Notes under the pieces: generated by a model
The model's input: the letters and a program-made list of their open reading frames with translations, nothing else
What the model was told of the DNA's origin: nothing
The model's database searches: none
Source of the DNA: Jiella pacifica
GTDB lineage: Bacteria > Pseudomonadota > Alphaproteobacteria > Rhizobiales > Rhizobiaceae
DNA length: 64,000 nt
Direction of reading: 5' to 3'
Assembly (NCBI RefSeq): GCF_010500815.1
Contig: NZ_JAAAMG010000022.1
Span: 1 to 64,000 of the forward strand
Program-made: the position numbers and the translations under genes
Part shown: positions 8,759 through 64,000 of the stretch, in pieces
Position numbering within the stretch: the first letter of the stretch is position 1
How the letters are laid out: every line of letters starts with the position of its first letter

Positions 8759-11293
<2,535 letters not shown>

Positions 11294-50999: not shown

Positions 51000-51317
51000 A
51001 TGTCCTTCAACGATCGCGGACAGGATTTCGAAGCCCGCTACGTGCACGATCAGGAACTCAAGTTTCGCATCGAGGCGCGTCGCAACAAGCTGATCGGGCT
51101 GTGGGCCGCAGAAAAGCTGGGTCTCTCCGGTGAGGAGGCCAATCGCTATGCTCAGGATGTGGTGGCCATCGCCTTTCAAACCCCGGGCGACGACGGGATC
51201 TTCCAGAAAGTCCGCGCCGACTTTGATGGGGCGAAGGTCGAACAGTCCGACCATCAGATCCACCGCCACATGGCTGAATTCCTGGGCGAGGCCGAGAATC
51301 AGATCCGCAGCGCCTGA
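51000..51317 (+). CDS. DUF1476 protein, F1Fo-ATP synthase inhibitory zeta subunit
   Basis: The 105-residue all-helical protein has the signature FNDRGQDFEARYVHDQELKFRIEARRNKLIGLWAAEKLGLSGEEA and ends in HRHMAEFLGEAENQI. In alphaproteobacteria DUF1476 is the zeta subunit, a natural inhibitor of F1-ATPase acting through its N-terminal segment, analogous to mitochondrial IF1. A GAGGAA site 9 nt before the ATG at 51000 supports the start. It is a single gene between the lysis cassette and a convergent hydrolase gene; no other ATP-synthase gene is nearby, which is normal for zeta. Confidence 0.92.
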   Translation: MSFNDRGQDFEARYVHDQELKFRIEARRNKLIGLWAAEKLGLSGEEANRYAQDVVAIAFQTPGDDGIFQKVRADFDGAKVEQSDHQIHRHMAEFLGEAENQIRSA

Positions 51318-51369
51318 CAATTCGCCGTTCTCGCCCAGGCGGCAGAACGCGGCGTCCTCGGATGCCGCG

Positions 51370-51933
51370 TCAACTCGCCGGGCGCGGCAGCCGGCTCATG
51401 AAGCGGCCGAAGGTCAGGAGACCTTCCGGCCAGGGCCCGTGGCCGCTTTCGGCATTGATGTGGCCGATTTCTCCGGCGTCGATGAACAGGGAGCCCCAGG
51501 CGCCGGCGATGTCCTCGACCGCCTCGAAGGACGAGAACATGTCGTTGCGGCTGGCGACGACAAGGCTCGGAAACGGCAGCGGATCGCGCGGATAGGGGCC
51601 GAAGGTGCGCAGATGCTTCGGCCGGATCGCCTCGTCGGCGACGTCAGGCGGTGCGACGAAGAACGCTCCGGCAACCGGTCTTTCGAATTTCGGCACCGCC
51701 TGGACCGCCGCTGCGACACCAAGCGAATGGGCAATGAGGACCACCGGTCGCGTCGCCGCATTGACGGCGCTGGCGACTGACCGGGTCCAATCCTCGACGA
51801 CGGGTTTGGACCATTCCACCTGATCGACGCGGCGCGCGGTCGAGAGCTTGCGCTCCCACCGGCTCTGCCAGTGGTCTTCGGACGATCCCTTGTATCCGGG
51901 GATGATGAGAATGTCGGCTTCGGCGGCACGCAT
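51370..51933 (-). CDS. RBBP9/YdeN-family small alpha/beta hydrolase
   Basis: The 187-residue hydrolase of the RBBP9 (DUF1234-like) family has DILIIPGYKGSSEDHWQSRWE near the start, the nucleophile elbow LIAHSLGVAAAVQA, an acid in VVASRNDMFSSFE and the C-terminal catalytic His in GHINAESGHGPWPEG. This family contains serine hydrolases of unknown physiological substrate. The ATG at 51933 is used because the PGYKGS motif begins about 12 residues later; a longer upstream start has no support. It is the last gene of the long minus-strand run, 151 bp after the YceI gene. Confidence 0.87.
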   Translation of the reverse strand: MRAAEADILIIPGYKGSSEDHWQSRWERKLSTARRVDQVEWSKPVVEDWTRSVASAVNAATRPVVLIAHSLGVAAAVQAVPKFERPVAGAFFVAPPDVADEAIRPKHLRTFGPYPRDPLPFPSLVVASRNDMFSSFEAVEDIAGAWGSLFIDAGEIGHINAESGHGPWPEGLLTFGRFMSRLPRPAS

Positions 51934-52083
51934 GGACCCGCAAATGCGAACACTCGCGGTCGAAGTCAACCGGCAGAGGCGGTGAGCCGCGGGAAGTTCA
52001 CACTTCGCGAGCGTTGTCATCGAGGCCGGACTGCCTGAGCGGCCCGCCGCCACTGCGGTCGCTCCACCGCACTCGGCCTGAGG

Positions 52084-53013
52084 TCAGCTCGTCGGAACGA
52101 AGGCGAGCTCGAAGGTCACCGGGGAAGACGGCGTGATCGAGATGTCGCCGACCGCTGAACTCAACTGTTTCAGGCCGTCGTCCATGCCGAAATCCGTGGC
52201 GGAAACCGTCACCGGCGATGCCGAGGCGACCGAGACGAGGCCGTCGCCGAGCTTCGAGATGATGACCGGAACTGTGATGTCCTTGCTGATGCCGCGGATG
52301 GTCAGCGTCACCGGCAGGTCGTAGGCCATCCGCGCCTCGTCGAAGACCGTGCCGATCGCCTGGGGATCGATTCGGGCGGTGATCGTCGCCTCGGGGAACT
52401 GCTCGATGTCGAACAGGAGAAAGCGCATCCTCACGTCTCGAATGTCGATGCCGGTCGATACCGATTCCAGTTTGATCTTCACCTCGGCGCCGCCATCGGA
52501 GGAGATCGTGCCGGAGAGTTCGCCGAATGTCTGTGTTTCGACGACGGTGCCCTTCTTGATGGTCACGAAGTTCAGCCGCGATCGGGAATTGTCGAGGGTC
52601 CAATCCTTTGAGAAGAACGCTTCCTTCTGCCCGCTTTCCGGCGTTGCCACCTCGCTCCGCGCCGCATCCGGCGCAGGGCCCGTCACGGTCGCGATTTGGG
52701 GGCCGCCGGCGGGCGCGGCTGCGCCGCTCTGCGCCCGCACCCAGCCATCGACGTTGTATTTGACGTTGGCGACCGTGTAGAAGCCAAGCCGATACCACTT
52801 CTGGCCGGCCGGATCGGCGGTCTCTTCCATGACGCAGGCCTGGGTCGCCTCGGGCAGGATCGCCACCGCCAGGCCGGCACCGCTGTCAGGCTTGTCGAAG
52901 AGCTCGGTTCTTGTATCGATCGCTTCGTAGAACTCGCAGGCCATTGCGGAACCCGCCCCGGCCAGGAGGGCTGCGAACAAGCCTGCGGCCGTCATCACGT
53001 GTCTCTGAGCCAT
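52084..53013 (-). CDS. Secreted SH3-like plus YceI-domain protein
   Basis: The 309-residue protein has a signal peptide (HVMTAAGLFAALLAGAGSAMA), an SH3-like N-terminal region with several Cys (CEFYEAIDTRTELFDKPDSG; WYRLGFYTVANVKYNVDGWV), a Pro/Ala linker (about 95-125), and a C-terminal YceI lipocalin-like domain (about 130-305; DNSRSRLNFVTIKKGTVVETQTFGELSGTI, ITARIDPQAIGTV). YceI proteins bind isoprenoid-like lipids in the periplasm. Fusion to an SH3-like domain hints at cell-wall association. It follows the SH3/CxxCH gene by 62 bp and could be the distal end of the large envelope-protease cluster. Confidence 0.8.
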   Translation of the reverse strand: MAQRHVMTAAGLFAALLAGAGSAMACEFYEAIDTRTELFDKPDSGAGLAVAILPEATQACVMEETADPAGQKWYRLGFYTVANVKYNVDGWVRAQSGAAAPAGGPQIATVTGPAPDAARSEVATPESGQKEAFFSKDWTLDNSRSRLNFVTIKKGTVVETQTFGELSGTISSDGGAEVKIKLESVSTGIDIRDVRMRFLLFDIEQFPEATITARIDPQAIGTVFDEARMAYDLPVTLTIRGISKDITVPVIISKLGDGLVSVASASPVTVSATDFGMDDGLKQLSSAVGDISITPSSPVTFELAFVPTS

Positions 53014-53075
53014 TTCGTGCTCCTCTCGTCACATCGTTGCAAAGACCGCCGTCCGCTCGGGGACATTCGTCGTCG

Positions 53076-53771
53076 TCACTGACAGCCGCTGCCGGCCCAG
53101 GTTGCGAGCGCCTTCTTGTAGGGGCCGCCATAGGGATGCTGGATGCGGATGATGCTGGCCGGGTCTGCCATGTAGGACTTGCCCTGATCGCAGAGCCGGT
53201 CCTTGTTCCACTGATGGCAGGACGTGCATTGCCGCTTCCAGCGCTCCTCCGGCAGGCCGTCGATCGGCGCGAACAGCGGCAGGCTGTTGGCGAGTTGCTC
53301 AAGGCTGCGCCCGCGCACCGGGAAGGGGCCGAAGGGGACTGGATCGATGAAGTTCAACGTGACCTGCTGGTCGCTGGCGACGGCAGCGGCGGGCGCCTCG
53401 TCGGCCGGCGAAGGCTGGCTTGCCTGATCCTCCACGGCAGCGGTGGGCGCCGTGCCGTTGTCGGGTGTATCGACCTTGGCGAGGTAGCGGATCGACGTCC
53501 AGCCTTCGATCGTCTGCGTGCCGCTCCCGTCGGGCCGGCTCTTGGAGACGACGTAGCCCCAGTCCTGGCCGCCGGCCGTCTCGTTCTTGGCGATGCAGAC
53601 GAGGTCGTTGTAGCGCAGGACGTCGAGGATGGTGCCGAAGACGTTCGGCTCGGCCCGCATGTTCAACAGCCGGGCCTCGACGCGATAGGTGTCGCAGGAC
53701 TGGGCGGTCGCCGGGTGAGAGAGAAACAGCGCTCCGAGGACGGTCGCGACGACGATAGACAAGCGTGACAT
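53076..53771 (-). CDS. Secreted SH3-domain protein with a CxxCH motif
   Basis: The 231-residue protein has a signal peptide (SRLSIVVATVLGALFLSHPATA), a bacterial SH3 domain (about 25-110: RVEARLLNMRAEPNVFGTIL, then CIAKNETAGGQDWGYVVSKS), a Pro/Ala linker, and a C-terminal segment with RQCTSCHQW, a possible c-type haem site, followed by two further Cys (RLCDQG and the final SGCQ). The CxxCH is followed by only about 50 residues, short for a cytochrome c domain and without an obvious axial Met, so the Cys residues may instead form disulfides. GAGGAA precedes the ATG at 53771. It lies between a subtilisin-like protease and a YceI protein on the same strand. Confidence 0.65.
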   Translation of the reverse strand: MSRLSIVVATVLGALFLSHPATAQSCDTYRVEARLLNMRAEPNVFGTILDVLRYNDLVCIAKNETAGGQDWGYVVSKSRPDGSGTQTIEGWTSIRYLAKVDTPDNGTAPTAAVEDQASQPSPADEAPAAAVASDQQVTLNFIDPVPFGPFPVRGRSLEQLANSLPLFAPIDGLPEERWKRQCTSCHQWNKDRLCDQGKSYMADPASIIRIQHPYGGPYKKALATWAGSGCQ

Positions 53772-53833
53772 GGAATTCCTCGCTACTGTGACGCGGGTTG
53801 ATAAACTGCCATCGGAGCGTTCTCCGACGGGAT

Positions 53834-55615
53834 TCAGCGCGCTGAGCCGGCCAGCGAACGTCCCGCGCTGGCAACGGGGGGCAAAACTTGGACGAGTCCG
53901 GCGCCGCAGCCCCTCGGGCACGCCTCGGAAGATCTGGAAAGGGCGGTGGCGACGAGCGCCTGGCGCGCCTCCTCGGCCGTCATCGCCGGCCGTGCGGCAA
54001 CGAGGGTCGCGACCACGGCGCTGACCAGTGGCGCCGCCATCGAGGTACCTTCCTTGAACTCGTAACCGCCGGACACGATCGACAGGATGCCGTCCGGCTG
54101 ACCGTTGCGGTCGTCGTCCCGCTGGGTGTTGCCGCCAGGCGCAAGGACGTCGATCCGCGGCCCGAAATTCGAATAGGGCGAGATCGCGCCGCGGGCGTCG
54201 GAGGCGGCGACGGTGATGACGCCGGCGCAGCTTGCCGGCGACGACTGGCGGGCATCCTCGGCGCTGTTGCCGGCGGCGGCGACGACCACCGCGCCAGCCG
54301 CCAGCGCGTCGTCGACCGCCGCCTGATAGGCGGCCGGACAGGCGCCGGGCCCGCCGAGCGACATGTTGATCACCTTGGCTGGGTTCGGATTGCTCGGCAC
54401 GCCGGCCACGGACACGCCGGCTGCCCAGCGCAGCGCATCGATGATGTCGGTATCGAAGCCGCCGCATCGGCCGAGGACGCGCACTGGCACGATGCGCACG
54501 GCAACGCCGGGAAGGCCGATGCCGAGCCGGTTGTCGCCTTCGACCGCCCCGGCGATGCCGGCGACGTGCGAGCCGTGCCAGGTGCTGGCGGTGGCGGGGG
54601 ATCCGGTGAAGCAGAGACCCGCAGTCGTCGCATCGCCCGGGTCGGCGGGATCGCTGTCGCGGCCGTCGCCGTCATTGGCGACGAGGTCGAGGGAGATGAA
54701 GTCGTAGCCGGGGAGGATCCTGTTTCTGGCGAGATCCTGATGACTGGCGACGAGGCCGGTGTCGATGATCGCGACAATCGGGCCGGCGGTGTCGGTCTGG
54801 CGATGCGCCGCCCGGTATGTGCGAAAGCCCGTCCCGCCGGGGAGCCTGTCAGCGGCCGCCTGCGGCGCATTGTCGAGGAGCTGCCATTGCAGCTGCGACA
54901 GCGGATCGTCCGAGAGGGCGGGGGGCGTCCCGATGTTGGCCGGTCCGCCGACCCGGCCCGAGCCGATGATGGCATCGATCGCCCCGACGTCGGGGCTCGG
55001 CGAACGGATGCCATCGGTCGGCGGCGGACGGTCGATGCCCAAAAGCGCATTGAAACCGTCGGCGGGATTGGCGACCTGATTGGCGAAGCGCATCATGTTC
55101 GGTTCGACCGAGGCCACCTGCGGCATCTGGCGAAGCGCCGTGACGATGGCGGCTGCTTCGGGCGCAATGTTCGTGACGAAGTCGCCGGCGCCGGCCGGAA
55201 CGGATGGGAAGGCGGCCCGGCCATTTTGTTCGCGGGCCGATCCGGGCAGCGCCACGACGAGACTTCGGCCGCTGCTGCCGGTTCCCGCTTCGATCGCCGC
55301 GACGACCGCATCCAACGATCCGCCGGCCGACTCGCGCTGGCGCCGTGCCGCCTCGATCCGGAGGCTTTCGCGATTTTCTCCGCTCCTGAGGGTGACGAGG
55401 ACGCGGGTCGGATCGACGAGGCGAAGCGGGGTCGTGGCCAGTGCCGGCGCTGCGCCGGGAACGATCTGCCGGCTGGCCTCGGCGAAACTCTCTTGGGCCT
55501 TCGCTGCGAAGCTGCCTTGGCCGGCCGCCAGGGTCGCTGCGAGAATGCCGACGCTCTTCAGGGCGCGGCCATGAAGGCGCCGGTCTCGAAGGGGTCTGCG
55601 ATCGAACCTACGCAT
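53834..55615 (-). CDS. Secreted subtilisin-like serine protease (family S8)
   Basis: The 593-residue protein has an N-terminal signal region (about 18-40), a propeptide-like segment (about 65-180 with FANQVANPADGFNALLGIDR), and a subtilase domain (about 270-560). The catalytic triad is Asp285 (VAIIDTGL), His347 (WHGSHVAGIAG) and Ser525 (GTSMAAP), with the oxyanion Asn450 (AAAGN). It should be a periplasmic or extracellular endoprotease maturing by self-cleavage. It lies within a cluster that also holds an S1 trypsin-like and a Lon-like protease, and is preceded by a 26-bp perfect palindrome. The ATG at 55615 follows a GGAG about 10 nt upstream. Confidence 0.9.
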   Translation of the reverse strand: MRRFDRRPLRDRRLHGRALKSVGILAATLAAGQGSFAAKAQESFAEASRQIVPGAAPALATTPLRLVDPTRVLVTLRSGENRESLRIEAARRQRESAGGSLDAVVAAIEAGTGSSGRSLVVALPGSAREQNGRAAFPSVPAGAGDFVTNIAPEAAAIVTALRQMPQVASVEPNMMRFANQVANPADGFNALLGIDRPPPTDGIRSPSPDVGAIDAIIGSGRVGGPANIGTPPALSDDPLSQLQWQLLDNAPQAAADRLPGGTGFRTYRAAHRQTDTAGPIVAIIDTGLVASHQDLARNRILPGYDFISLDLVANDGDGRDSDPADPGDATTAGLCFTGSPATASTWHGSHVAGIAGAVEGDNRLGIGLPGVAVRIVPVRVLGRCGGFDTDIIDALRWAAGVSVAGVPSNPNPAKVINMSLGGPGACPAAYQAAVDDALAAGAVVVAAAGNSAEDARQSSPASCAGVITVAASDARGAISPYSNFGPRIDVLAPGGNTQRDDDRNGQPDGILSIVSGGYEFKEGTSMAAPLVSAVVATLVAARPAMTAEEARQALVATALSRSSEACPRGCGAGLVQVLPPVASAGRSLAGSAR

Positions 55616-55685
55616 CTGATTCAAGCTCCGAAAACGTGCGGCCAAGGCGCGGGAACGAAGGACGGAAGGCGGTTCATGGGTTCGG

Positions 55686-55711
55686 AGGCGCCCGCCGATC
55701 GGCGGGCGCCT
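55686..55711 (-). other. 26-bp perfect palindrome between two cluster genes
   Basis: AGGCGCCCGCCGA and its exact complement fill 55686-55711, with no separate loop bases. It lies 9 bp after the stop of the CsgG-like gene and 70 bp before the S8 protease start. As RNA it would form an 11-bp stem with a 4-nt loop but has no T-tract; a processing or stability element is more likely than a terminator. Confidence 0.55.
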
Positions 55712-55719
55712 TGCGTTTC

Positions 55720-56754
55720 TCAGTTCTCGCGGACGCCGAGGGCCTCGACGACGATCTCGTTCGAGCCTTGGGTCTGCGGGTCGGCGACGACGCCCATGAG
55801 CTCGAGCATCAGCCGGACGTTGCGCAGAACGCGCTGCTGGTCGGAGCGGGTCTTGTAGGAGAAGGTGATCTCCGAGAAGTCCGACTTCGAGACGTCGAGA
55901 TCGAGCGCGCACTTCCAGTAGGACATGTACTCCTCGACGGCGTTCATCTGGCGCTGCTCGAAGCCGCGGAAGGTGACGGCGAAGACGGTCGGGGGATTGT
56001 CGCAGCCCGATCCGCCGACGCCGCGACGGGGCAGAGCGGCGACGTCGCCGTCGATGGCGTCGTTGGTGCCGGCATCGTGACCGCCATCGGACGAATAGCC
56101 GCCGCCGCCGCTGCTGCGGCCGAGGAGTGCAGCAAGCTGAATGGCCAGCTTGTTGCCGGCGTTGCGGGCCAGTTTCTCGCCGTTCAGGGAGACGAACTCC
56201 TTGATACAGTGCGGATCGGCCGGCGTGCCGTTGAGGCCGGCGGCACAACCGGCAAAGGCGGTGCCCTGGGTGTCGAGGTCGAGATTGTCGCCGCCGGCGA
56301 AGCGGCCGCTGCGCACGTCGATGGCGCGATAGTTCAGTGACATCTGCAGCTTGACGATGCCGCTGTATGGGTCCGTCACGGCGCGAGCATAGATCGTGTA
56401 GGGGACGACGTAGTCCATCTGGGGATTGTCGACGGAACGCACGACCGAGATCAGTTCCTCGTCGGTGCGGCGCTGACGATCCTGCTGGTAGAAGTTCAGC
56501 GTCAGCGCGGTCTCGTCATAGACGTCGAGGCCTTGGATGCCGTACTTCTGCAGCTGCGACTGATAGGCAGGCGAATTGAGCGTCTGGTTGATCGTCGACA
56601 GCACCGCATTCTGGATGCGGTTGTTGCGCGCCAGGCTCTCCGTGTCCCAGTCCTCCTGCATGACGAGGACGTTGAGGGTGGCGGCATGCGCGGCACCGGC
56701 CAAGGTGCAAAGGCCGATCATCGCGGCGGCGGTCGTTCTTGCGAGCATCTTCAT
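55720..56754 (-). CDS. Secreted protein, CsgG/FlgT-like fold suspected, unknown function
   Basis: The 344-residue protein has a signal peptide (KMLARTTAAAMIGLCTLAGAAHA). Residues 24-190 read as an alternating beta/alpha region (LNVLVMQEDWDTESLARNNR; YVVPYTIYARAVTDPYSG; LQMSLNYRAIDVRSGRFAGG) resembling the CsgG/FlgT/LpoB-type fold of periplasmic assembly proteins; this is a judgement on pattern, not a motif match. A Gly/Ser-rich linker (GRSSGGGGYSSDGG) separates it from a C-terminal domain (about 255-344) with FEQRQMNAVEEYMSYWKCAL. The start at 56754 has GGAGAG upstream. It lies between an OmpA-family and an S8 protease gene on the same strand. Confidence 0.6.
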   Translation of the reverse strand: MKMLARTTAAAMIGLCTLAGAAHAATLNVLVMQEDWDTESLARNNRIQNAVLSTINQTLNSPAYQSQLQKYGIQGLDVYDETALTLNFYQQDRQRRTDEELISVVRSVDNPQMDYVVPYTIYARAVTDPYSGIVKLQMSLNYRAIDVRSGRFAGGDNLDLDTQGTAFAGCAAGLNGTPADPHCIKEFVSLNGEKLARNAGNKLAIQLAALLGRSSGGGGYSSDGGHDAGTNDAIDGDVAALPRRGVGGSGCDNPPTVFAVTFRGFEQRQMNAVEEYMSYWKCALDLDVSKSDFSEITFSYKTRSDQQRVLRNVRLMLELMGVVADPQTQGSNEIVVEALGVREN

Positions 56755-56859
56755 CGGGGCTCTCCGGTTCCTTGTCATTGGTTCTGAGGGATGGGGGGAT
56801 CGGCTGCTCGGCAAGGTGCCGGGCGGCTCAGTCTGGTGGTGGTTCGTCGTGCCCCTCCC

Positions 56860-57894
56860 TCAATTTTCGATCGCCGAGTTCTGGTCGGCGGCGGGATTGG
56901 CCGGGGGAGAGACCGCCGGCGTCGCCGTGTCGGCCTTCGGCGCGGGCTCTGGTGCCTCCGCGGCGATCGGCTCCGGCGATGGCTGCGTGCCTTCGCCGGA
57001 AACGTCGCTGCAGGGAACCGGGGTCGGGCGATTGCCGAAGTCGTCGAGGCCGGTGTCGGCCGGCCGCGGGTCGGCAATTCCTTCCGTCCCCGCGCAGTCG
57101 TCGGCAACGGCCGGCGGGGGAGCCGCGGCGCCGTATTGGGCGAGGCCGAGATCCTCGGCACTGGGCGCCGGGCCCTTGTGGTAGGTGGCGCGCGGCGCCT
57201 CGAAGCGCTCGGCCGTCGGCCCGGAATAGCCGTCCTCGATCAGGGTGATCTCGACGCGGCGGTTGATGCCGTCGCGGGGCCGGCGACGATCGGCAAGGCG
57301 CGTCTCGCCGAAGCCGACGACGATCAGCCGGTCAGGATCGACGCGGAAATTCTTCACCAGATAGCGTTTGGCCGAAAGCGCCCGGCTTTCCGAAAGCCAC
57401 TGGTTGTAGGCGTCCTTGCCGGCGGCGTCGGTGTGGCCGGCGATGAGGTACTGGCTGCCTTCGAGCTCGCTTGCCTCCAGGGCGTAGCCGAGATCGTCGA
57501 GGACCTCCGCCGTTTCCCGGGTGATGTCGAAGCTGTCGAAATCGTAGTAGACGGCCAGGTCGACGGAATGGTTGTAGTTCAGAATGACCTTCTTCATGCC
57601 GTCCCGGCCGGGAAGCGGGATCTCCATCTGGATGATCCGGTTGGCGTAGGCGGCGTCGTCATAGCGGCTGCGGGCGGCGGGGCGCAGGGTCTTGATGATG
57701 CGCTCGGCCCGCTCCGTCATCTGATGCGGCTTTGTCTGTTGGGCGAGAGCGACCGATCCGATGCCGAAGGCCGATGGCGCCGCCGAAGCCATCATCGCCG
57801 CCAGAAGCAGCCGCGCCAGCGCGCTCGCGCGCGGTGCACCGGGCTTTGCCGGGTCCTCGCCGCTTCCGATTGTCGAACCCGTCATCCTTGCCAT
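56860..57894 (-). CDS. OmpA-family protein with a C-terminal peptidoglycan-binding domain and disordered tail
   Basis: The 344-residue protein has a signal-like hydrophobic stretch (LARLLLAAMMASAAPSAFGIG, about 26-47) after a long charged N-terminus, then an OmpA_C domain (about 105-215): YYDFDSFDITRETAEVLDDL, LIAGHTDAAGKDAYNQWLSESRA, VGFGETRLADRRRPRDGINRRVEI. The GHTDxxG and NRRVEI motifs bind peptidoglycan. The last 110 residues are Pro/Ala-rich and disordered, without a beta-barrel, so it likely links the envelope cluster to the cell wall. It is 72 bp after the trypsin-like gene and upstream of the CsgG-like gene on the same strand. Confidence 0.87.
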   Translation of the reverse strand: MARMTGSTIGSGEDPAKPGAPRASALARLLLAAMMASAAPSAFGIGSVALAQQTKPHQMTERAERIIKTLRPAARSRYDDAAYANRIIQMEIPLPGRDGMKKVILNYNHSVDLAVYYDFDSFDITRETAEVLDDLGYALEASELEGSQYLIAGHTDAAGKDAYNQWLSESRALSAKRYLVKNFRVDPDRLIVVGFGETRLADRRRPRDGINRRVEITLIEDGYSGPTAERFEAPRATYHKGPAPSAEDLGLAQYGAAAPPPAVADDCAGTEGIADPRPADTGLDDFGNRPTPVPCSDVSGEGTQPSPEPIAAEAPEPAPKADTATPAVSPPANPAADQNSAIEN

Positions 57895-57965
57895 TGTCCT
57901 CAGCCTTTTGATGCGGTTGATCGGTCGTTTCTCGAAGTGGAAGGGCTAGAGCGCTTCCAGCGGCC

Positions 57966-59033
57966 TCACTGGCCGAGAATGTCATTGTATGGTTTGGCCG
58001 AGCCGGTGCCGCCGATCACCTCGTTCTGGCTCGCGCCGAAGGCCGGCTGCGGGGTAATGGCCGGGTCAGCGGCGGCCGGTTGGCGGGCAACGGCCGCCGA
58101 TGTCGTGGAGGTGCCCGACGATGATGCCGGGGCAGCGGCCGCCACGGGCGCGGAGGCGTCGCCGCCCGATGCCGGAGGCAGGTGGAGGAAGGCGCTTTCG
58201 CCGATGATGTCGACGGTGTTCGAGCCCTCGTTGAAGCTCGACGGATCGTTTTCGTTCAGGCCGCCCGAGTGGTGGATGCCGACCACCTGCCGGTCCGAAT
58301 TGAAGATCAGGGCGCCGGAGGAGCCGGGCAGCGTGTCGCAGCGATGCCGCAGGAGCGGACCGTCCTCCTGCTTGTCGGCGGCATAGCAGCGGAACTGCGT
58401 CATCATCTTCGGCTGGCCGGCCGGATGGTGGACGATGGTGAGGCGTTCCAGCGGTCGCGACCGTTCGCGCGAAAACGGCACCGGCAGGATATCGGCCGGA
58501 GGCGGACCGGCAAGGCGCGACAGGGAATAGTCGAGCTTCGGATCGTTCTCGACCGGGGCCGTGTCCACCGGGATGCGGATCGTCTGGCTGTCGGGGCCGT
58601 AATAGTCGAGCAGCAGCGAGGCCTCGAGCACCTTGCCGGAAAAGCCTGGAATGCAGTGGTAGTTGGTCAGAACCAGATTGCCTTCGACGATCGTCGCGGT
58701 GCAGGTGGAGAGGAATTCCTTGCCGTTCTCCTCGACCTTCAGATCGAGCCGCCCGATGGCTCGCGAAAGCCGGCGCATCGGATCGTCGTCGCGCAACAGG
58801 CCGATCGGCTCGAAGACGTTCTGCCGGTCGACGACGTCGCGGGCGGCGTCGCCGAGCGACTGGCGGAGCGGCAGGACGACCTTGCCGTAATCCTCCACCG
58901 GCAGCTTGAAGTCGATCGCCGACGCGTTCGAGGCGAAGACCACCGTGCCGAGCATCGCGGCGGTGAGGAAGGCAGCGAGGCGGCGCTTGCGGGCATTGCC
59001 GGACCGGCAGGGTTCGTCGAAGGGGCGTGCCAT
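57966..59033 (-). CDS. Secreted trypsin-like serine protease (S1/V8 type)
   Basis: The 355-residue protein has a signal (RRLAAFLTAAMLGTVVFASNASA) and a chymotrypsin-fold domain (about 60-280) with His126 in LTNYHCIPG, Asp168 in KLDYSL, and Ser239 in LPGSSGAL (GSSG in place of GDSG). The Pro/Ala/Ser-rich C-terminal tail (about 290-355) is disordered. The V8-like pattern predicts cleavage of periplasmic or extracellular substrates, maybe a partner in the same cluster. GAGGAAA before the ATG at 59033 supports the start, 11 bp after the stop of the preceding gene. The motif set is complete, so it should be active. Confidence 0.88.
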   Translation of the reverse strand: MARPFDEPCRSGNARKRRLAAFLTAAMLGTVVFASNASAIDFKLPVEDYGKVVLPLRQSLGDAARDVVDRQNVFEPIGLLRDDDPMRRLSRAIGRLDLKVEENGKEFLSTCTATIVEGNLVLTNYHCIPGFSGKVLEASLLLDYYGPDSQTIRIPVDTAPVENDPKLDYSLSRLAGPPPADILPVPFSRERSRPLERLTIVHHPAGQPKMMTQFRCYAADKQEDGPLLRHRCDTLPGSSGALIFNSDRQVVGIHHSGGLNENDPSSFNEGSNTVDIIGESAFLHLPPASGGDASAPVAAAAPASSSGTSTTSAAVARQPAAADPAITPQPAFGASQNEVIGGTGSAKPYNDILGQ

Positions 59034-59044
59034 TGCAGGTTTCC

Positions 59045-59779
59045 TCAGCTTCCGGGTTTGCTTTTGTTGACCAGCCTCAGCGAGAAGCTCTCGACGGTCG
59101 GGGAGGCGGCGTCGATCTCGTCGTCCCACACCGCCTCGACCTTGATCGTCAGGGCCTTGACGTCGAGCGGCCGGATCGGCGTCATGATCTCGCGGCCAGG
59201 ACCGAGCGCGATGCCGGAATTCAGCCGGCTGTCCGAAACGATGGCGACCGTCTTCAGCTCTTCGCCGACGCGCACCACGACCGTCCGCCGGTCCGAATCG
59301 TTGCGGACGCCGAGAAGGCAGAGTTCGCCGAGATCGAAGTCCAGCGTGCCGTCGACGTTCGGGCTGTGGCGGACCCTCGTCGACGGGCGGACATCGAAGA
59401 GAACGTCCTGGCACTTTTCGCCCGGCAGCGGGTGCACCGAGATCACCGAGAGGTTCTCGACCGGGTGCGCGCTGTTCAACCAGCGCTCGTCGTTGCCGGG
59501 ACGGATCGGAGCGGCTGGCGCGGCCTGTTCCTGCGCTGGGACGTTCGCCTGCTGTCCAGCCGTGCTGGGAAAGGGCGAGGAGTGAAGGCCGGGCGTACCG
59601 GCGTCCTCGACTGCGGCCGGCGTTTCGCCGCCGAGAATGGCGTTGACGTCGCTCTGCGCAAGCGCCGGGAGCGAGAGGCACGGCGAGAGGCACGCGAGGA
59701 GGCTGGCGAGACCGGCGGAGATGGTCCGCAGCCGGCGCGACCGGACGGAACGCCTATCGGAGCGGTATCCTGCGGTCAT
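59045..59779 (-). CDS. Secreted protein of unknown function with a beta-rich C-terminal domain
   Basis: The 244-residue protein has a signal (SAGLASLLACLSPCLSLPALAQ, cleaved near residue 42) after a basic N-terminus, a low-complexity segment (about 45-90), then a beta-rich domain (about 95-244) with the block LCLLGVRNDSDRRTVVVRV. The same kind of block (CGIRLRNLSDQAQKLFVDAR) occurs in the C-terminal half of the Lon-like protein encoded just upstream, so the two may share a domain. The start at 59779 is the first ATG with a signal sequence. It was not recognised as a known family. Confidence 0.6.
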   Translation of the reverse strand: MTAGYRSDRRSVRSRRLRTISAGLASLLACLSPCLSLPALAQSDVNAILGGETPAAVEDAGTPGLHSSPFPSTAGQQANVPAQEQAAPAAPIRPGNDERWLNSAHPVENLSVISVHPLPGEKCQDVLFDVRPSTRVRHSPNVDGTLDFDLGELCLLGVRNDSDRRTVVVRVGEELKTVAIVSDSRLNSGIALGPGREIMTPIRPLDVKALTIKVEAVWDDEIDAASPTVESFSLRLVNKSKPGS

Positions 59780-59819
59780 GCCGATTTTCCCATCTCCCAG
59801 GTTGCCGGAAGCCGGCCGT

Positions 59820-61097
59820 TTATCTGATCGCGATCGAAACCTGGCTTTCCTGTCCGCTGGAATCGCGCGTCCTCGCGTCGGCCTCGATCCGGGTCGGCGT
59901 TCGGGCAAAGTAGAGAAGTGTGGCCTCGCCGGACGACAGGTCCCCGCCGGACAAGACAGAGGCCCCGCCCGGGATGGCGAGACTGGTCAGCCGAGCATCG
60001 ACGAAAAGCTTCTGCGCCTGGTCCGAGAGGTTGCGCAGCCTGATGCCGCAGAGCCCCTCGCTCGCTTTCAGCGTGAAGCCGCCCGCGACACGACTGGCCG
60101 GCTCGACCGCCAACTGTCCGCCGGTGTAGATTTTTTCCTGACATGCCGCTCTGGTCTCCGCATAGAGCCCGTCCACCGCGAGATTGTCGGTCGCAGTGAT
60201 GGTGGCCCGTTCGGGCTGGTGACCCGTATCGAGAGCGGGAGTGGAATGCTCAGAGAAGAAAAGCGCGCTGCCGGCGGCGAGTGCGAGGAGGGCGGTGCCG
60301 CCGCCGAGGCCGAGGATCAGGCGGCCGCGCTCCGATCGGATGCTCCGGCCGGCTTCGGTGGAACCGCCTGATGCAGCGCTGCGGCCATCCGGTGCATGTC
60401 GCGTGTCGGCGGTCCCGTCTTCGACGAGATCCGGTGAACCGCCGTCCATCTCGATGCCGAATGCCGCCAGCACATCTGCCAGCGAGGCGGCGACCGTCAG
60501 CTCGGCGCCGAATTCGGCGGCGAAGGCCTCGATCTCTCCGCGCTCTTGCCGGTGTTGCGGCGGCGGAACGACCATCACCGCCTTCAGCCCATTGGCCGCG
60601 GCTTCGCAAAACAGCGGCCGCGACAGTTCGAGCTTCAGCGGGACGTGGTAGTCGGCGGTCTGGGGATTGAGATCCGCATCGACCATCCCGGTCGCCCAGA
60701 CGAGCGTCGGATCGCGTTCGTCCAATCGCCCGGCGGCCTCGACCAGATGGGCGATGAGCACGGGCAATTCCCAGGATCGACCGCAGTCGAGCCCGTCGGA
60801 AAGGCTGAGTTCGGTGGAGGGCAGGTCCGTCACGACGAGGCGCAGCGGGCCGTTGACGAAGCGGTGGTAGTCCGAGGAAAGGGCGAGGGGGCGGAAGTCG
60901 CCGGCGATCGCCATGTAACTCGCGGGAACCCGCGGACGGCGCTTGATGGCCCGGAGCTCGACCGGCTTGGCCGTTGTCGGAATGATGACACGCATACACT
61001 TTCGCGCGTTGCCGTTCGCCGCGAAACGCGCCGCATCGAAAACGGGGTCGGAAGCCGGACTGTGCGCGAATTGACGCAGGGTTTCAAGCGCTCGCAT
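59820..61097 (-). CDS. Membrane protein with an N-terminal Lon-like (S16) protease domain and a periplasmic beta domain
   Basis: The 425-residue protein has residues 60-215 resembling the Lon S16 proteolytic domain: Ser108 in CGRSWELP aligns with the Lon nucleophile Ser and Lys155 in HVPLKLE with its Lys, 47 residues apart (43 in E. coli Lon). TLVWATGMVDADLNP matches the Lon xTGEV block, and the C-terminal FGAELTVAASLADVLAAFGI matches the closing strand-helix. No AAA+ ATPase domain is present. One membrane helix follows (about 259-282), then an outside beta domain (about 300-425) like that of the next gene. The start is uncertain: an ATG at 60995 would remove 34 residues. It lies between two unknown genes in the protease cluster. 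Confidence 0.6.
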   Translation of the reverse strand: MRALETLRQFAHSPASDPVFDAARFAANGNARKCMRVIIPTTAKPVELRAIKRRPRVPASYMAIAGDFRPLALSSDYHRFVNGPLRLVVTDLPSTELSLSDGLDCGRSWELPVLIAHLVEAAGRLDERDPTLVWATGMVDADLNPQTADYHVPLKLELSRPLFCEAAANGLKAVMVVPPPQHRQERGEIEAFAAEFGAELTVAASLADVLAAFGIEMDGGSPDLVEDGTADTRHAPDGRSAASGGSTEAGRSIRSERGRLILGLGGGTALLALAAGSALFFSEHSTPALDTGHQPERATITATDNLAVDGLYAETRAACQEKIYTGGQLAVEPASRVAGGFTLKASEGLCGIRLRNLSDQAQKLFVDARLTSLAIPGGASVLSGGDLSSGEATLLYFARTPTRIEADARTRDSSGQESQVSIAIR

Positions 61098-61180
61098 CCG
61101 GTTCGTCTCGATACCTTCCTCGCAGCTCTCCCGCCAGACAACTCAAGTTCCGGAGAGAAAACGCGGCGATTTCATTTCAC

Positions 61181-61720
61181 TTACGAAAGATAGATCTCCG
61201 TCTTGGGATCCTTCAGGAGTTCGATCGTTCGGAAGTTGTCGGCTGCTCCGGGGTCGAGCCCGATCTGCAGGACGCCCCCGATAGAATTACCTAAGGGAAT
61301 GTCGAGTGACAATCTCTTTTCTTCGTGGATCAAGGTAAGGTGACGGGGCAACTCACCGGCCGCATTGGGAGAAACGATCACGAAGCAGGCGTCGCTCTCC
61401 TCGACGAGCTCGAGCCGGAAGCCGCCGATGGTTCGGGCGACGTCGGTTTCGGTGCTGGCGGCGCGGGCGACCGTCGAGAAGGCGAGGCTTCGGCCCTGGA
61501 GATACTGTCGCCGCAGCCGCAGCAGCCCGAGCGGGATCGGCGTCCCGGGTGTCTCGCTCGCCTGCCCGGCCAGAAACGCGGCGACGTCGAGACGGCCGGC
61601 GCCCTCGGCTCTTTCGGCGCCATGCCCCGCAAGATCGCGGGTGGCGCGGCGATCGACGAAGCGGCGTTCGGCCTCCATGAGAAGCTCCGGTGATGTGATC
61701 GGGGGGAGGCGGATTGTCAC
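61181..61720 (-). CDS. Hypothetical protein of the envelope-protease cluster
   Basis: The proposed 179-residue product begins at a GTG (61720) behind AAAGGGA, since no ATG with a ribosome site lies between the upstream stop (61827) and the conserved-looking region. An N-terminal helical stretch (PELLMEAERRFVDRRAT) is followed by LLRLRRQYLQGRSLAFSTVA, and then a beta-rich C-terminal half with FRLELVEESDACFVIVSPN and HLTLIHEEKRLSLDIPL. No signal peptide or membrane helix is visible, so it is probably cytosolic. It was not recognised as a known family. It is encoded between the 494-residue unknown protein and the Lon-like membrane protease on the same strand. Confidence 0.55.
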   Translation of the reverse strand: MTIRLPPITSPELLMEAERRFVDRRATRDLAGHGAERAEGAGRLDVAAFLAGQASETPGTPIPLGLLRLRRQYLQGRSLAFSTVARAASTETDVARTIGGFRLELVEESDACFVIVSPNAAGELPRHLTLIHEEKRLSLDIPLGNSIGGVLQIGLDPGAADNFRTIELLKDPKTEIYLS

Positions 61721-61826
61721 TGCATTATCCCTTTCAGCATGGTCCTCTGCGGGACCTTCGGTCTCCGGCGGAACGGTCGTCTTTGCAGCCGCCGCGTCGG
61801 CAGGTCGGCCGCCGGCGGCGAAGAAT

Positions 61827-63311
61827 TCAATCGGCGTAGAGGCGGCTGAGATGTGCCGCGAACTTCGCCCGGTCGGCCTCGAAACCGGCGTCGAGATCGC
61901 CGTTCGGTCCCGCCCGGCCGCGGGTGGCGGCGCGGAAGGCGCCGAGCGTCGTGGCAAGCGCGATCAGAGCCCGCTCCACCCTGGCGAAGGCTGTCGCGAG
62001 TTCTTCGCGCGGCCTTGCCAGGGATTGGCTTCGCCGCGATTTCAGAAGCTGCGCGCCCTCGGCGCGGATGGCATCGGCACGGGCGTTGCCCGTCGCTTCC
62101 TCGGACCTGACGGCGAAGGCGATCTTCAGCCATTCCGTCATGGCGGCTTCGAGTTCGCCCACCTCGCCGATGAGATCGCCGTAGCGCCGGGCTTCGACGC
62201 AGGTGACGCGCTCCTTCAGCGAAAGCGTTGCCTTGCCTGTCCTCAGTGAATTGGAAAGCGCAGACTGGATCGGGTGGAAGGCGAGAAGCCTCAGGGTGGC
62301 GAGGGGCAGGCTGCAGCCGAAGGCTCCGGCCGAGGCGATCGGTGCGGCGAGCATTTCCTCGCGCTTCTTGATCAGCTTGACCTCGCTCTCGGCGATCGCC
62401 TTCAGTGCCGCGATGGCCGCATCCTCGCGGCCGCCACGGCCGCTTCCGTCGGCGGCCACCTGCTCGACGTCCTCGGCGATGTCGCCCGTCGCCGCGTCCT
62501 CTTCCTCGACGTCGAAGGGATCGACGAAGTCGACGGAGAGCTCGCCTGCAACGCCCGGCGCGTCGATCTCGCCCGCCCGGCGCATCGCCGCCCGCGAGCG
62601 GGCATCGGCGAGGGCGTCGACATAGTCCTTCAGCGCGAAGTAGCTCGCCTGATAAGTCTTGAAGTGGCCGTTGGTGTCGGCCGACCAGAAGTCGAACACC
62701 GTGTCGTCGGTGATCACGTCGCCGACCCCGGCGAGATAGGCCCTGAGGATCGAGAAGGCCGAGGTGGCGTGGCCGTCGTCGAAGTGGTCGGCCCGGTAGC
62801 GGTAGAGGATCTTGGCGATCGTCTTCACCGCCGTGTCGGTCGTCGACCTGTCGGCGAGTCCGCCTTTCAGGCAGGCGTCGAGCAGGGCGGCGACCTCGCC
62901 GGAATGGGCAAAGCCGTTGCAACTGATCAGGAACTCCAGATATTTCTGCAGGAGCTTCAGCCGGAACCGGTCGAGCATCAGGCCGCCGCCGGGAAGCTTC
63001 AGATGATAGGAGCCGCTCTCGTTGGCGGAAACCGCCGGATGGCGGCAGCCGGCAAGGTGGGAGAACACCTTGTTCGCCGGCAGCCAGAGGAAGTCGAGCG
63101 AACTCGCGAGACCCGCCCCGGTCTCGCCGAACAATGCCAGCGCGCCTGCCAGCGCCCAGACCGGCTTGTCGCGATTGGCGCCCCAGCCATTGGCGATCAT
63201 CTGGGCGAGGGCGAGCCGAAACCGGTCGGAGGCGTCGGTGCCGTCGACGAGCGCGTCGAATTCCGACCGGGCGGTTTCGGACCAGGTGAAGAGCGTGTCG
63301 GGCTGCCCCAT
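61827..63311 (-). CDS. Hypothetical cytosolic protein of the envelope-protease cluster
   Basis: The 494-residue product has no signal or membrane helix. The N-terminal half (about 1-240) is mostly helical and looks like an ordered domain (MGQPDTLFTWSETARSEFDAL; WLPANKVFSHLAGCRHPAVS). An acidic low-complexity hinge (about 270-310, with DVEEEDAATGD) follows, and the C-terminal half is helical with coiled-coil character (LIKKREEMLA; GEVGELEAAMTEWLKIAF; FARVERALIALA). AAGGGG 7 nt before the ATG at 63311 favours that start over the one 6 nt upstream at 63317. No known family was recognised. It lies between a TPR-like protein gene and two other cluster genes on the same strand. Confidence 0.6.
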   Translation of the reverse strand: MGQPDTLFTWSETARSEFDALVDGTDASDRFRLALAQMIANGWGANRDKPVWALAGALALFGETGAGLASSLDFLWLPANKVFSHLAGCRHPAVSANESGSYHLKLPGGGLMLDRFRLKLLQKYLEFLISCNGFAHSGEVAALLDACLKGGLADRSTTDTAVKTIAKILYRYRADHFDDGHATSAFSILRAYLAGVGDVITDDTVFDFWSADTNGHFKTYQASYFALKDYVDALADARSRAAMRRAGEIDAPGVAGELSVDFVDPFDVEEEDAATGDIAEDVEQVAADGSGRGGREDAAIAALKAIAESEVKLIKKREEMLAAPIASAGAFGCSLPLATLRLLAFHPIQSALSNSLRTGKATLSLKERVTCVEARRYGDLIGEVGELEAAMTEWLKIAFAVRSEEATGNARADAIRAEGAQLLKSRRSQSLARPREELATAFARVERALIALATTLGAFRAATRGRAGPNGDLDAGFEADRAKFAAHLSRLYAD

Positions 63312-63400
63312 ACTCATACCCCTTCGTGGTATCACTCGATGGTCGTGGCGGGCCGAGCCGCCTGCGGGCCGCTCCGGGCGGCCCGACGTTGCTTCGCCCG

Positions 63401-64000
63401 TCAGCCCTTCTCGTCGAACTCCCGGACGAGCTGGCGGGCATGGTCGGCATAGCGACCCGTCGGACGCTTGCGCAGATATTCCGCCAGCGCGTCGCGGCTG
63501 CGCTCGACCAGCACCCGCTGCCAGTCGGTCTCGTCCTGCAGCATCTCGATCCTGTCGCGGGCTTCGCGCAGATGCTTGCCGCTCGGATATTGCAGGACGT
63601 AGCGCCGATAGGCCTCGACGGTGTGGGCGTTCGAGACTTCCTCCCAGGTGGCTTCCTGGGCCAGCAGGCTGGTCAGCCGTTCCTTGATCTCCGGGCCGTA
63701 GACGCTGGTTGGAAAGCGGGCGAGGAATTCGTCGTAGTCGGCCGAATCGGTGGAGGCCATCGCCGTCTTGTAGGCCTTGAGATCTTCGCTTTCGGCGGCC
63801 ACCGCCCGTTCGGGCGCGCTCGTTCCCGGCTGGCTCGCCGTGCCCCGCGTGGCGAAGTCCGGCCGGCTCTCGATCTCGGAGACGAGCTTGATCGCCTCGC
63901 CCATCTTCCGGCAGGAGCCGCAGACGGCGGGAAGATCGTTGCAACTCGCCAGGTAGCGGATGAGACCGTCATAGGACCGATCGGCGGGAAACTGCGCATC
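63401..64000 (-). CDS. TPR-like repeat protein, C-terminal part (continues off the window)
   Basis: The frame is open from the window edge to the stop at 63401, giving 199 C-terminal residues, so the N-terminus is missing. Degenerate helical repeats carry a Trp and Tyr pattern with Pro-Gly turns (YDEFLARFPTSVYGPEIKERL; AYRRYVLQYPSGKHLREARDRI; LAEYLRKRPTGRYADHARQL), as in YbgF/BamD-like TPR proteins and the C-terminal repeat tails of caspase-like proteins. Four Cys lie in the upstream part (LASCNDLPAVCGSC). Its stop is 84 bp before the next cluster gene. Function is unknown; the repeats suggest protein binding. Confidence 0.6.
   Translation of the reverse strand, partial: DAQFPADRSYDGLIRYLASCNDLPAVCGSCRKMGEAIKLVSEIESRPDFATRGTASQPGTSAPERAVAAESEDLKAYKTAMASTDSADYDEFLARFPTSVYGPEIKERLTSLLAQEATWEEVSNAHTVEAYRRYVLQYPSGKHLREARDRIEMLQDETDWQRVLVERSRDALAEYLRKRPTGRYADHARQLVREFDEKG

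What the first reader, a model, noticed from the sequence alone, without database searches (positions are those of the whole stretch)
53076..64000. Minus-strand cluster pairing three protease families with envelope and unknown proteins
At least ten consecutive genes encode, in transcription order, a TPR-like repeat protein, two unrecognised cytosolic proteins, a membrane Lon-like (S16) protease, a secreted beta-rich protein, a trypsin-like S1 protease, an OmpA-family protein, a CsgG-like protein, an S8 subtilase and an SH3/CxxCH protein; a YceI protein and a small hydrolase follow. Three unrelated proteases with cytosolic adaptors, an anchored Lon-like factor and peptidoglycan-binding proteins look like a trans-envelope signalling or conflict system. 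I know of no named system with this set. NTP-dependent conflict systems and caspase/TPR-linked modules are the nearest concept, but no ATPase or NTP switch is visible within the window.
Basis: partly seen in the sequence, partly recalled or inferred. Interest (0 to 1): 0.85.

Follow-up and report, generated by a model that had tools for sequence, protein, structure and literature searches.

The report
Transferable envelope protease-and-peroxidase gene module
A block of thirteen genes, present in some proteobacteria and cleanly absent from a close relative, pairs three kinds of exported protein-cutting enzyme (one a caspase) and a haem protein with an unnamed membrane core that resembles a stripped-down Lon protease; it may be a new kind of cell-envelope response system, but its purpose is unproven.

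Summary
The cluster is real and conserved, and its core is in no family library searched. It runs past the window: the "TPR-like" gene is the C-terminus of a secreted caspase, with an OmpA protein and a di-haem protein upstream. The unit is 13 genes (A-M): in a same-genus genome the 18.66-kb block holding them is replaced by 213 bp. The small hydrolase is flank. Core genes D-E-F (two unrecognised proteins without signal peptides; a one-TM protein with a Lon-like fold, invariant Ser and Lys, no ATPase) travel together: of 14 order genomes (297 searched) with D or F, 12 have both; of 47 F loci, 46 have D and 44 E. Protease active-site residues are intact in all relatives checked. Outputs vary: caspase, trypsin and OmpA in most alphaproteobacterial loci; animal-haem peroxidases in two; kinase, FHA or transglycosylase genes in distant ones, once a Lon-like/kinase/TonB fusion. 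Exported proteins of at least six unrelated families share a DINxILGG-like motif, possibly a docking tag. Best reading: F/D/E control tagged envelope proteases and haem enzymes across the inner membrane. "CsgG-like" is not supported; no STAND/MoxR/vWA switch was found. Function is inferred.

The parts
63401..64000 (-). C: secreted caspase (Peptidase_C14), 1025 aa; the window holds its C-terminal repeat-like part, the gene runs to 66478 of the contig. Upstream, outside the window: B OmpA protein (66743-67783) and A di-haem DHOR/MauG-like protein (67966-70170)
   Evidence: PF00656 1.7e-9, PF00691 1.5e-8, PF06537 9.6e-8; His/Cys dyad in 28 of 28 relatives; two CxxCH in A (8 full-length relatives of 8)
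61827..63311 (-). D: core protein, 494 aa, mostly helical, no signal peptide seen
   Evidence: No Pfam or NCBIfam family; AlphaFold pLDDT 85.6; no solved match above Z 5.1; at 46 of 47 F loci
61181..61720 (-). E: core protein, 179 aa, no signal peptide seen
   Evidence: No family, no PDB sequence relative; at 44 of 47 F loci
59820..60995 (-). F: Lon-like fold (1-183) with invariant Ser74 and Lys121, one TM segment, C-terminal beta-domain (about 265-391)
   Evidence: 37 of 37; 10 of 10 distant; TM by eye
59045..59779 (-). G: exported beta-domain protein, paralogue of the C-terminal domain of F; tag SDVNAILGG after the signal peptide
   Evidence: hhalign 97.2%, E 4.1e-11; 14 of 47 loci
57966..59033 (-). 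H: exported trypsin-like protease; tag-like PYNDILGQ at the C-terminus
   Evidence: PF13365 1.1e-15; triad in 29 of 29 relatives
56860..57894 (-). I: exported OmpA-domain protein
   Evidence: PF00691 3.7e-20
55720..56754 (-). J: exported protein of an unrecognised conserved family (not CsgG by sequence)
   Evidence: 34 of 47 loci
53834..55615 (-). K: exported S8 subtilase; tag-like FNALLG in the linker before the catalytic domain
   Evidence: PF00082 1.1e-50; triad in 8 of 8 relatives
53076..53771 (-). L: exported protein with one CxxCH
   Evidence: 8 of 8 relatives keep CxxCH; SH3_3 only E 0.047
52084..53013 (-). M: exported YceI-domain protein, last gene of the block
   Evidence: PF04264 2.2e-18
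51971..51972 (.). Left boundary (approximate) of the 18.66-kb block; right boundary near 70631 of the contig
   Evidence: BLASTN of the flanks against the empty site in same-genus genome G649

Best explanation
A discrete 13-gene accessory module encodes a trans-envelope control unit plus exported effectors. SHOWN by computation: the block A-M is present or absent as one unit in same-genus genomes; D, E and F are its constant core; F has a Lon-like N-terminal domain with an invariant Ser and Lys at the topological places of Lon's catalytic pair, no ATPase domain, and a C-terminal beta-domain; caspase, trypsin and subtilase keep their catalytic residues; exported proteins of unrelated families share a short motif. 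INFERRED: the beta-domain of F lies in the periplasm and, with its exported paralogue G, senses or organises an envelope complex; the signal reaches the cytosolic Lon-like domain, which cleaves or regulates D and E (a Ser/Thr kinase fused to F, or encoded beside it, in distant relatives fits such signalling). Exported effectors (caspase, trypsin, subtilase, haem proteins of peroxidase type, OmpA anchors) are gathered on a shared scaffold through the motif and act as a local proteolytic and oxidative response to damage or to contact with other organisms.
For: Empty site: 18.66 kb against 213 bp. Core: D and F shared by 12 of 14 order genomes that have either; 46 and 44 of 47 F loci have D and E; D-E-F also in 10 distant loci, there without the caspase except one 8 kb away. 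F fold, Ser/Lys invariant, G a paralogue of its beta-domain. Catalytic residues: 28 of 28, 29 of 29, 8 of 8. Kinase and TonB fused to F in L085; kinase-FGE and FHA genes beside D in L086. Exchange of the di-haem protein for animal-haem peroxidases that carry the same motif. Motif.
Against: No expression, biochemical or phenotype data. Lon homology is not visible in sequence, so proteolytic activity of F is a guess; Lon-type domains in RadA and ComM serve other roles (recalled). Start/stop overlaps couple D-E (21 of 36) and I-J (12 of 30) but not E-F (0 of 36) and hardly F-H (1 of 29; in part G lies between) or H-I (4 of 27), and gaps in this genome reach 264 bp, so one transcript is not shown. 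The motif pattern was written after seeing examples. Topology and signal peptides are by eye.
Confidence: 0.4

Rival explanations
1. Surface-polymer maturation: exported proteases and haem enzymes process and cross-link an extracellular matrix or surface layer, OmpA proteins anchor it, and F/D/E are quality control of the assembly. No conflict or death function.
For: Peroxidase-type haem proteins, OmpA and G beta-domains fit assembly; an M15 carboxypeptidase and an SLT transglycosylase near D-E-F in other genomes point to cell-wall work.
Against: Three intact proteases, one a caspase, in one block; patchy presence (3 of 199 family genomes) is odd for basic wall building; no structural polymer gene recognised in the block.
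Confidence: 0.25
2. Conflict system: the block kills the cell, a neighbour or an invader at the envelope when contact or phage attack is sensed, as proposed for cytosolic caspase/trypsin conflict systems.
For: Presence/absence as a block, patchy distribution, caspase and trypsin together, FGE and kinase genes in distant versions.
Against: No NTPase switch; PADLOC hits only generic (9 of 13 products); no phage or plasmid copies; effectors appear exported.
Confidence: 0.2
3. Coincidence: separate envelope and protease genes that merely lie together.
For: Individual domains are common; gaps of 11-264 bp would allow several transcripts.
Against: Order and strand kept across many genera; one block at an empty site; partial start/stop overlaps; shared motif.
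Confidence: 0.03

Closest known systems
NTP-dependent conflict systems with caspase/trypsin effectors (VMAP, iSTAND, EACC1-caspase; PMC7159879, passages and section 33 seen)
   Same: Caspase and trypsin-like peptidases near a constant membrane-linked component; some iSTAND systems carry TM-anchored OmpA, PEGA or Sel1 domains; patchy distribution; FGE and kinase domains recur in distant D-E-F loci.
   Different: No MoxR, vWA, STAND or GTPase in the block; caspase under the EACC1-type cut-off (48.5 against 140 bits); proteases exported; constant part is D-E-F with a Lon-like fold.
YlbL-type ATPase-less Lon protease (PMC6051672, passages seen)
   Same: TM segment, Lon-type protease domain without AAA+, Ser-Lys pair (S234/K279, spacing 45; F 47).
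   Different: YlbL is TM-Lon-PDZ and acts outside the cell; F has no PDZ, its Lon-like domain precedes the TM and is presumably cytosolic, and it comes with D and E.
RadA/ComM/BrxL Lon-type domains
   Same: Among the best structural matches, together with Lon itself.
   Different: Those are soluble ATPases (recalled); F is membrane-bound with no ATPase domain.
Prokaryotic metacaspase operons (PMC3501461, passages seen)
   Same: OmpA domains in 14 of 217 metacaspase operons; [quoted passage not shown] alphaproteobacteria rich in metacaspases.
   Different: The passages I saw describe no D-E-F core, peroxidase partner or shared tag; its figures and tables were not seen, so single operons of this kind may be among those counted.

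Membership tests
Lon/S16 peptidase (F) | Lon proteolytic-domain fold | tested here: met
   Residues 1-183, Z 11.5-13.4, rmsd 2.7-3.8 in the 50 rows shown; plain Foldseek had no hit under E 0.001
Lon/S16 peptidase (F) | Sequence match to Lon_C | tested here: not met
   No Lon family for any of 37 members; hhalign 0.2-0.4% against 13 Lon_C sequences. F is therefore called Lon-like in fold, not filed as S16
Lon/S16 peptidase (F) | Ser-Lys catalytic pair | tested here: inconclusive
   Ser74 and Lys121 invariant in 37 of 37 and 10 of 10 distant, places fit Lon topology (Lon recalled); geometry and activity not tested
Caspase/Peptidase_C14 (C) | C14 domain with His/Cys dyad | tested here: met
   38.1 bits against 21.4; dyad in 28 of 28 relatives
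EACC1-type caspase system | EACC1-associated caspase subfamily score | tested here: not met
   48.5 bits against a cut-off of 140
NTP-dependent conflict systems (VMAP/iSTAND) | MoxR/vWA/STAND NTPase in the system | tested here: not met
   None by Pfam among the 13 products; D, E, F, G, J have no Pfam match at all
CsgG (J) | CsgG domain | tested here: not met
   hhalign 1.1% with 12 of the 16 CsgG matches. Fold of J not predicted
DHOR/MauG-type di-haem protein (A) | DHOR domain and two CxxCH | tested here: met
   31.3 bits against 22; two CxxCH in 8 of 8 full-length relatives. Peroxidase activity not testable
PADLOC defence systems | Match to a named defence protein set | tested here: inconclusive
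   Subtilase 1.5e-15, IetS 5.2e-9, RT-Protease_XI 4.4e-6: generic protease parts; 9 of 13 products scanned, I, J, L, M not

The most novel reading that the evidence does not exclude
D-E-F is a general, unnamed trans-envelope signalling core of Proteobacteria built on an ATPase-less, membrane-anchored Lon-like protease, sometimes fused to a Ser/Thr kinase and a TonB domain. In alphaproteobacteria it commands a multi-protease plus peroxidase assembly outside the inner membrane whose parts are gathered by a shared peptide tag, perhaps read by the F/G beta-domains: in effect an extracellular, complement- or apoptosis-like cascade in a bacterium.
Probability: 0.25. Interest if true: 0.9.

Novelty: categorically new. 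Interest (0 to 1): 0.74.

Why it matters
No named system with this make-up was found, and its three constant proteins match no Pfam or NCBIfam family. It would add a membrane-anchored, ATPase-less Lon-like protein to bacterial signalling, put a bacterial caspase outside the cytosol beside a trypsin, a subtilase and haem proteins in one transferable unit, and offer a short peptide tag that can be tested and used to predict further effectors. It also gives a concrete handle on what alphaproteobacterial caspases do.

Tried and rejected
CsgG identity of J: rejected. Sequence-level Lon identity of F: not found, so the claim is kept to fold. D: no solved match above Z 5.1 (a second look at Foldseek's own candidates, not a full search). 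E: no PDB sequence match; G and J: none credible. Plain Foldseek on F: 0 hits at E 0.001. Rfam: nothing in 51000-64000. Promoter scan 0 sites; terminator-like sites 7 against 7.9 in shuffles: uninformative. tRNA beside the insertion: none in L128 or L001. Homology of the caspase's N-terminal domain with the stand-alone gene between caspase and D in Methylobacterium: suggested by position and by iterated profiles meeting in L017 and L039, but direct comparison is 7%, so not claimed. A double-glycine-leader reading of the tag was set aside because the spacing differs in A. Literature: searches gave no description of the system in the listings and passages seen; most subscription journals are not held.

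Rows dropped: of 15 genomes with F, 10 neighbourhoods were newly fetched; G313 (E 6.9e-4, partial) was dropped and the other four were in hand. In the 47-locus count L018, L019, L021, L022, L024, L088, L089 were left out as the same contigs as other loci, L029 as a second piece of L018's contig, and the window itself is not counted. Four partial CsgG matches of 16 were left out. Caspase-fold FNQVFG matches were removed. Among the ten distant loci, neighbours were scanned with Pfam in L078, L079, L084, L085, L086 and L087 only, and only in part.
Full report
WHAT IS THERE. The window is bases 1-64000 of a 102,212-base contig. On the minus strand, in transcription order: A di-haem DHOR/MauG-like protein (67966-70170), B OmpA (66743-67783), C caspase (63401-66478), D (61827-63311), E (61181-61720), F (59820-60995), G (59045-59779), H trypsin-like (57966-59033), I OmpA (56860-57894), J (55720-56754), K subtilase (53834-55615), L CxxCH protein (53076-53771), M YceI protein (52084-53013). 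D, E, F, G and J have no Pfam match and no NCBIfam match over a cut-off. Starts were chosen by eye.

IT IS A UNIT. In same-genus genome G649, which has no F match, the matches of the hydrolase next to M and of the manC gene next to A lie 279 bp apart. DNA comparison of the flanks puts the boundaries near 51971 and 70631: an 18.66-kb block holding A-M, with no other gene that I recognised, against 213 bp. G837, same genus, carries the cluster between the same two genes; in G769, which also lacks F, the two genes are on different contigs; in G680 the cluster and the two genes are on three contigs. No tRNA gene was found beside it. F occurs in 3 of 199 genomes of the family, 13 of 297 of the order and 15 of 398 of the phylum (one weak and partial). 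No match to D on plasmids or to F on phages.

THE CORE IS D-E-F. D is in 13 and F in 13 of 297 order genomes; 12 have both. The D-only genome has it at base 375 of a contig, so F may lie beyond its end; the F-only genome (L026) has a weak E match on the other strand. Across 47 distinct F loci, D is present in 46, E in 44 (43 on F's strand), OmpA in 34, J in 34, a trypsin in 30 and a caspase in 29 (27 on F's strand). In 30 of 30 named loci D, E and F occur together. Start and stop codons overlap by 4 or 1 bases for D-E in 21 of 36 loci and I-J in 12 of 30, but E-F in 0 of 36, F-H in 1 of 29 and H-I in 4 of 27: coupling is supported for parts only. In the Aurantimonas/Jiella/Fulvimarina group (8 loci) B-J are all present and A, K, L, M are in 7, the missing ones where the held DNA ends. 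Of 19 Methylobacterium/Methylorubrum loci, D, E, F and H are in 19, the caspase, OmpA and J in 18; A, G, K, L, M were not found.

F, G AND D. AlphaFold on 13 sequences of F gave pLDDT 79.0, with 186-263 disordered. Residues 1-183 align with Lon, RadA, ComM, MtaLonC and BrxL domains at Z 11.5-13.4, rmsd 2.7-3.8 (50 rows); plain Foldseek gave no hit at E 0.001. Sequence methods do not see it: no Lon chain in PDB sequences, no Lon family in Pfam for 37 members, only weak single-member matches, hhalign 0.2-0.4% against 13 Lon_C sequences. Ser74, in G-x-S-W just before helix 76-87, and Lys121, in helix 118-134, are invariant in 37 of 37 sequences and 10 of 10 distant ones; place and spacing (47) agree with Lon's pair as I recall it and with YlbL (45; PMC6051672, passages). 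The C-terminal domain of F is homologous to G (97.2%, E 4.1e-11). D is predicted mostly helical with pLDDT 85.6 and matches no solved fold well (best Z 5.1).

EFFECTORS. Active-site residues are intact: caspase 28 of 28 relatives, trypsin 29 of 29, subtilase 8 of 8. In two other alphaproteobacterial genomes an animal-haem-type peroxidase (PF03098, 6.2e-20 in L017, 1.9e-13 in L029) is present and A was not found: in L017 it lies directly upstream of a stand-alone homologue of the caspase's N-terminal domain (no caspase in that stretch); in the genome of L018/L029 it lies directly upstream of the caspase, the pair being several kilobases from D-E-F on the opposite strand. Trypsins diverge from the cluster in L027 and L028, an M15 carboxypeptidase ends the one in L018, and a Methylobacterium caspase carries Sel1 repeats. 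In the ten distant loci, scanned only in part, D-E-F sit beside an SLT transglycosylase (L078), a kinase-FGE protein and an FHA protein (L086), sub-threshold FHA/TPR (L085), and many unrecognised small membrane proteins; in L085, F is one open frame with the Lon-like part, a Ser/Thr kinase (220-486) and a TonB C-terminal domain (795-860). J relatives occur in four distant loci, a trypsin in one of them (L084), and a caspase 8 kb from F in L087. I infer a control unit with exchangeable outputs.

THE TAG. Exported proteins of unrelated families carry a short motif, D-[IV]-N-x-[IL]-[IL]-G-G or close variants: G just after its signal peptide (SDVNAILGG), A likewise (SDAINDAILGG), B near its N-terminus (EINRVIQGG), H at its C-terminus (PYNDILGQ), K in the linker before its catalytic domain (FNALLG here, INAILGG in relatives), OmpA C-termini in L018 and L017 (TNSLIGD, TNSLINN), a trypsin N-terminus in L028 (NLNDLIGG), and both animal-haem peroxidases in linkers (DINNAIFGG, DINNILG). 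With a relaxed pattern, ten exported proteins of this genome have 7 sites in 6 proteins against a mean of 0.29 in residue shuffles (0 of 2000 reached it), and 69 other ORFs of the contig have 1; one of the seven lies inside the caspase fold and may be unrelated. A first pattern gave 32 sites in 143,666 aa of cluster ORFs, 12 of them a caspase-fold stretch, against 4 in 944,427 aa. Outside the Jiella/Aurantimonas group a further pattern gave 5 sites in 104,562 aa of cluster-family ORFs against 6 in 912,752 aa of others, two of these six being the L017 peroxidase and the L028 trypsin. This is not a blind test: most of those examples had been seen before that pattern was written; only the L029 peroxidase and the L017 OmpA C-terminus were looked at afresh (looser pattern). 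Counts within a family are not independent; what matters is recurrence in six unrelated families (OmpA, di-haem protein, trypsin, subtilase, G, animal-haem peroxidase). Methylobacterium loci, which lack G, mostly lack the motif. A docking or sorting role is inferred.

MECHANISM AND NOVELTY. Best reading: a trans-envelope control unit (F/D/E) governing tagged envelope proteases and haem enzymes, in response to damage or other organisms; surface-polymer maturation and a conflict system in the strict sense are the main rivals. Nearest known: caspase/trypsin conflict systems (PMC7159879, passages and section 33), which have NTP switches; YlbL (PMC6051672, passages); metacaspase operons, 14 of 217 with OmpA and one conserved protease/protease-inhibitor variant in four Rhizobium strains (PMC3501461, passages). 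Eight searches on the system showed no description; a ninth was for YlbL. 'Unnamed' is limited to that library and to Pfam, NCBIfam and PADLOC.

VERDICT. Function inferred only.

Noticed in passing
L085:9124-11745 (+): F relative that joins the Lon-like part to a Ser/Thr kinase and a TonB C-terminal domain in one open frame.
   Followed up: partly
L086:2618-7121 (+): Kinase-PEGA-FGE protein and FHA-domain protein immediately before D-E-F, like a phospho-signalling pair.
   Followed up: partly
L078-L080, L084-L087: Recurrent set of small unrecognised proteins around D-E-F in distant proteobacteria, e.g. about 138 aa with MTEIALxLxMxFFxxxxL and about 130 aa with LERER near the N-terminus (by eye).
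   Followed up: no
L017:9092-11215 (-) and L029:8872-10644 (-): Animal-haem-type peroxidases near the cluster, both with the DIN tag in a linker.
   Followed up: partly
L110 (G000:C56:90113-90811): A second caspase in the same genome, a stronger Pfam match (E 7.4e-40) than the cluster's; neighbourhood not examined.
   Followed up: no
L019:17300-17563 (-), L021:16445-16858 (-): Small secreted protein just upstream of the Methylobacterium caspase with a conserved NQEFLGVDLDNGGVYYNG-like stretch; the L019 copy has no Pfam match.
   Followed up: no
L018:1786-2841 and 9886-10941 (+): J and its OmpA neighbour are duplicated on both sides of D-E-F in this genome.
   Followed up: no
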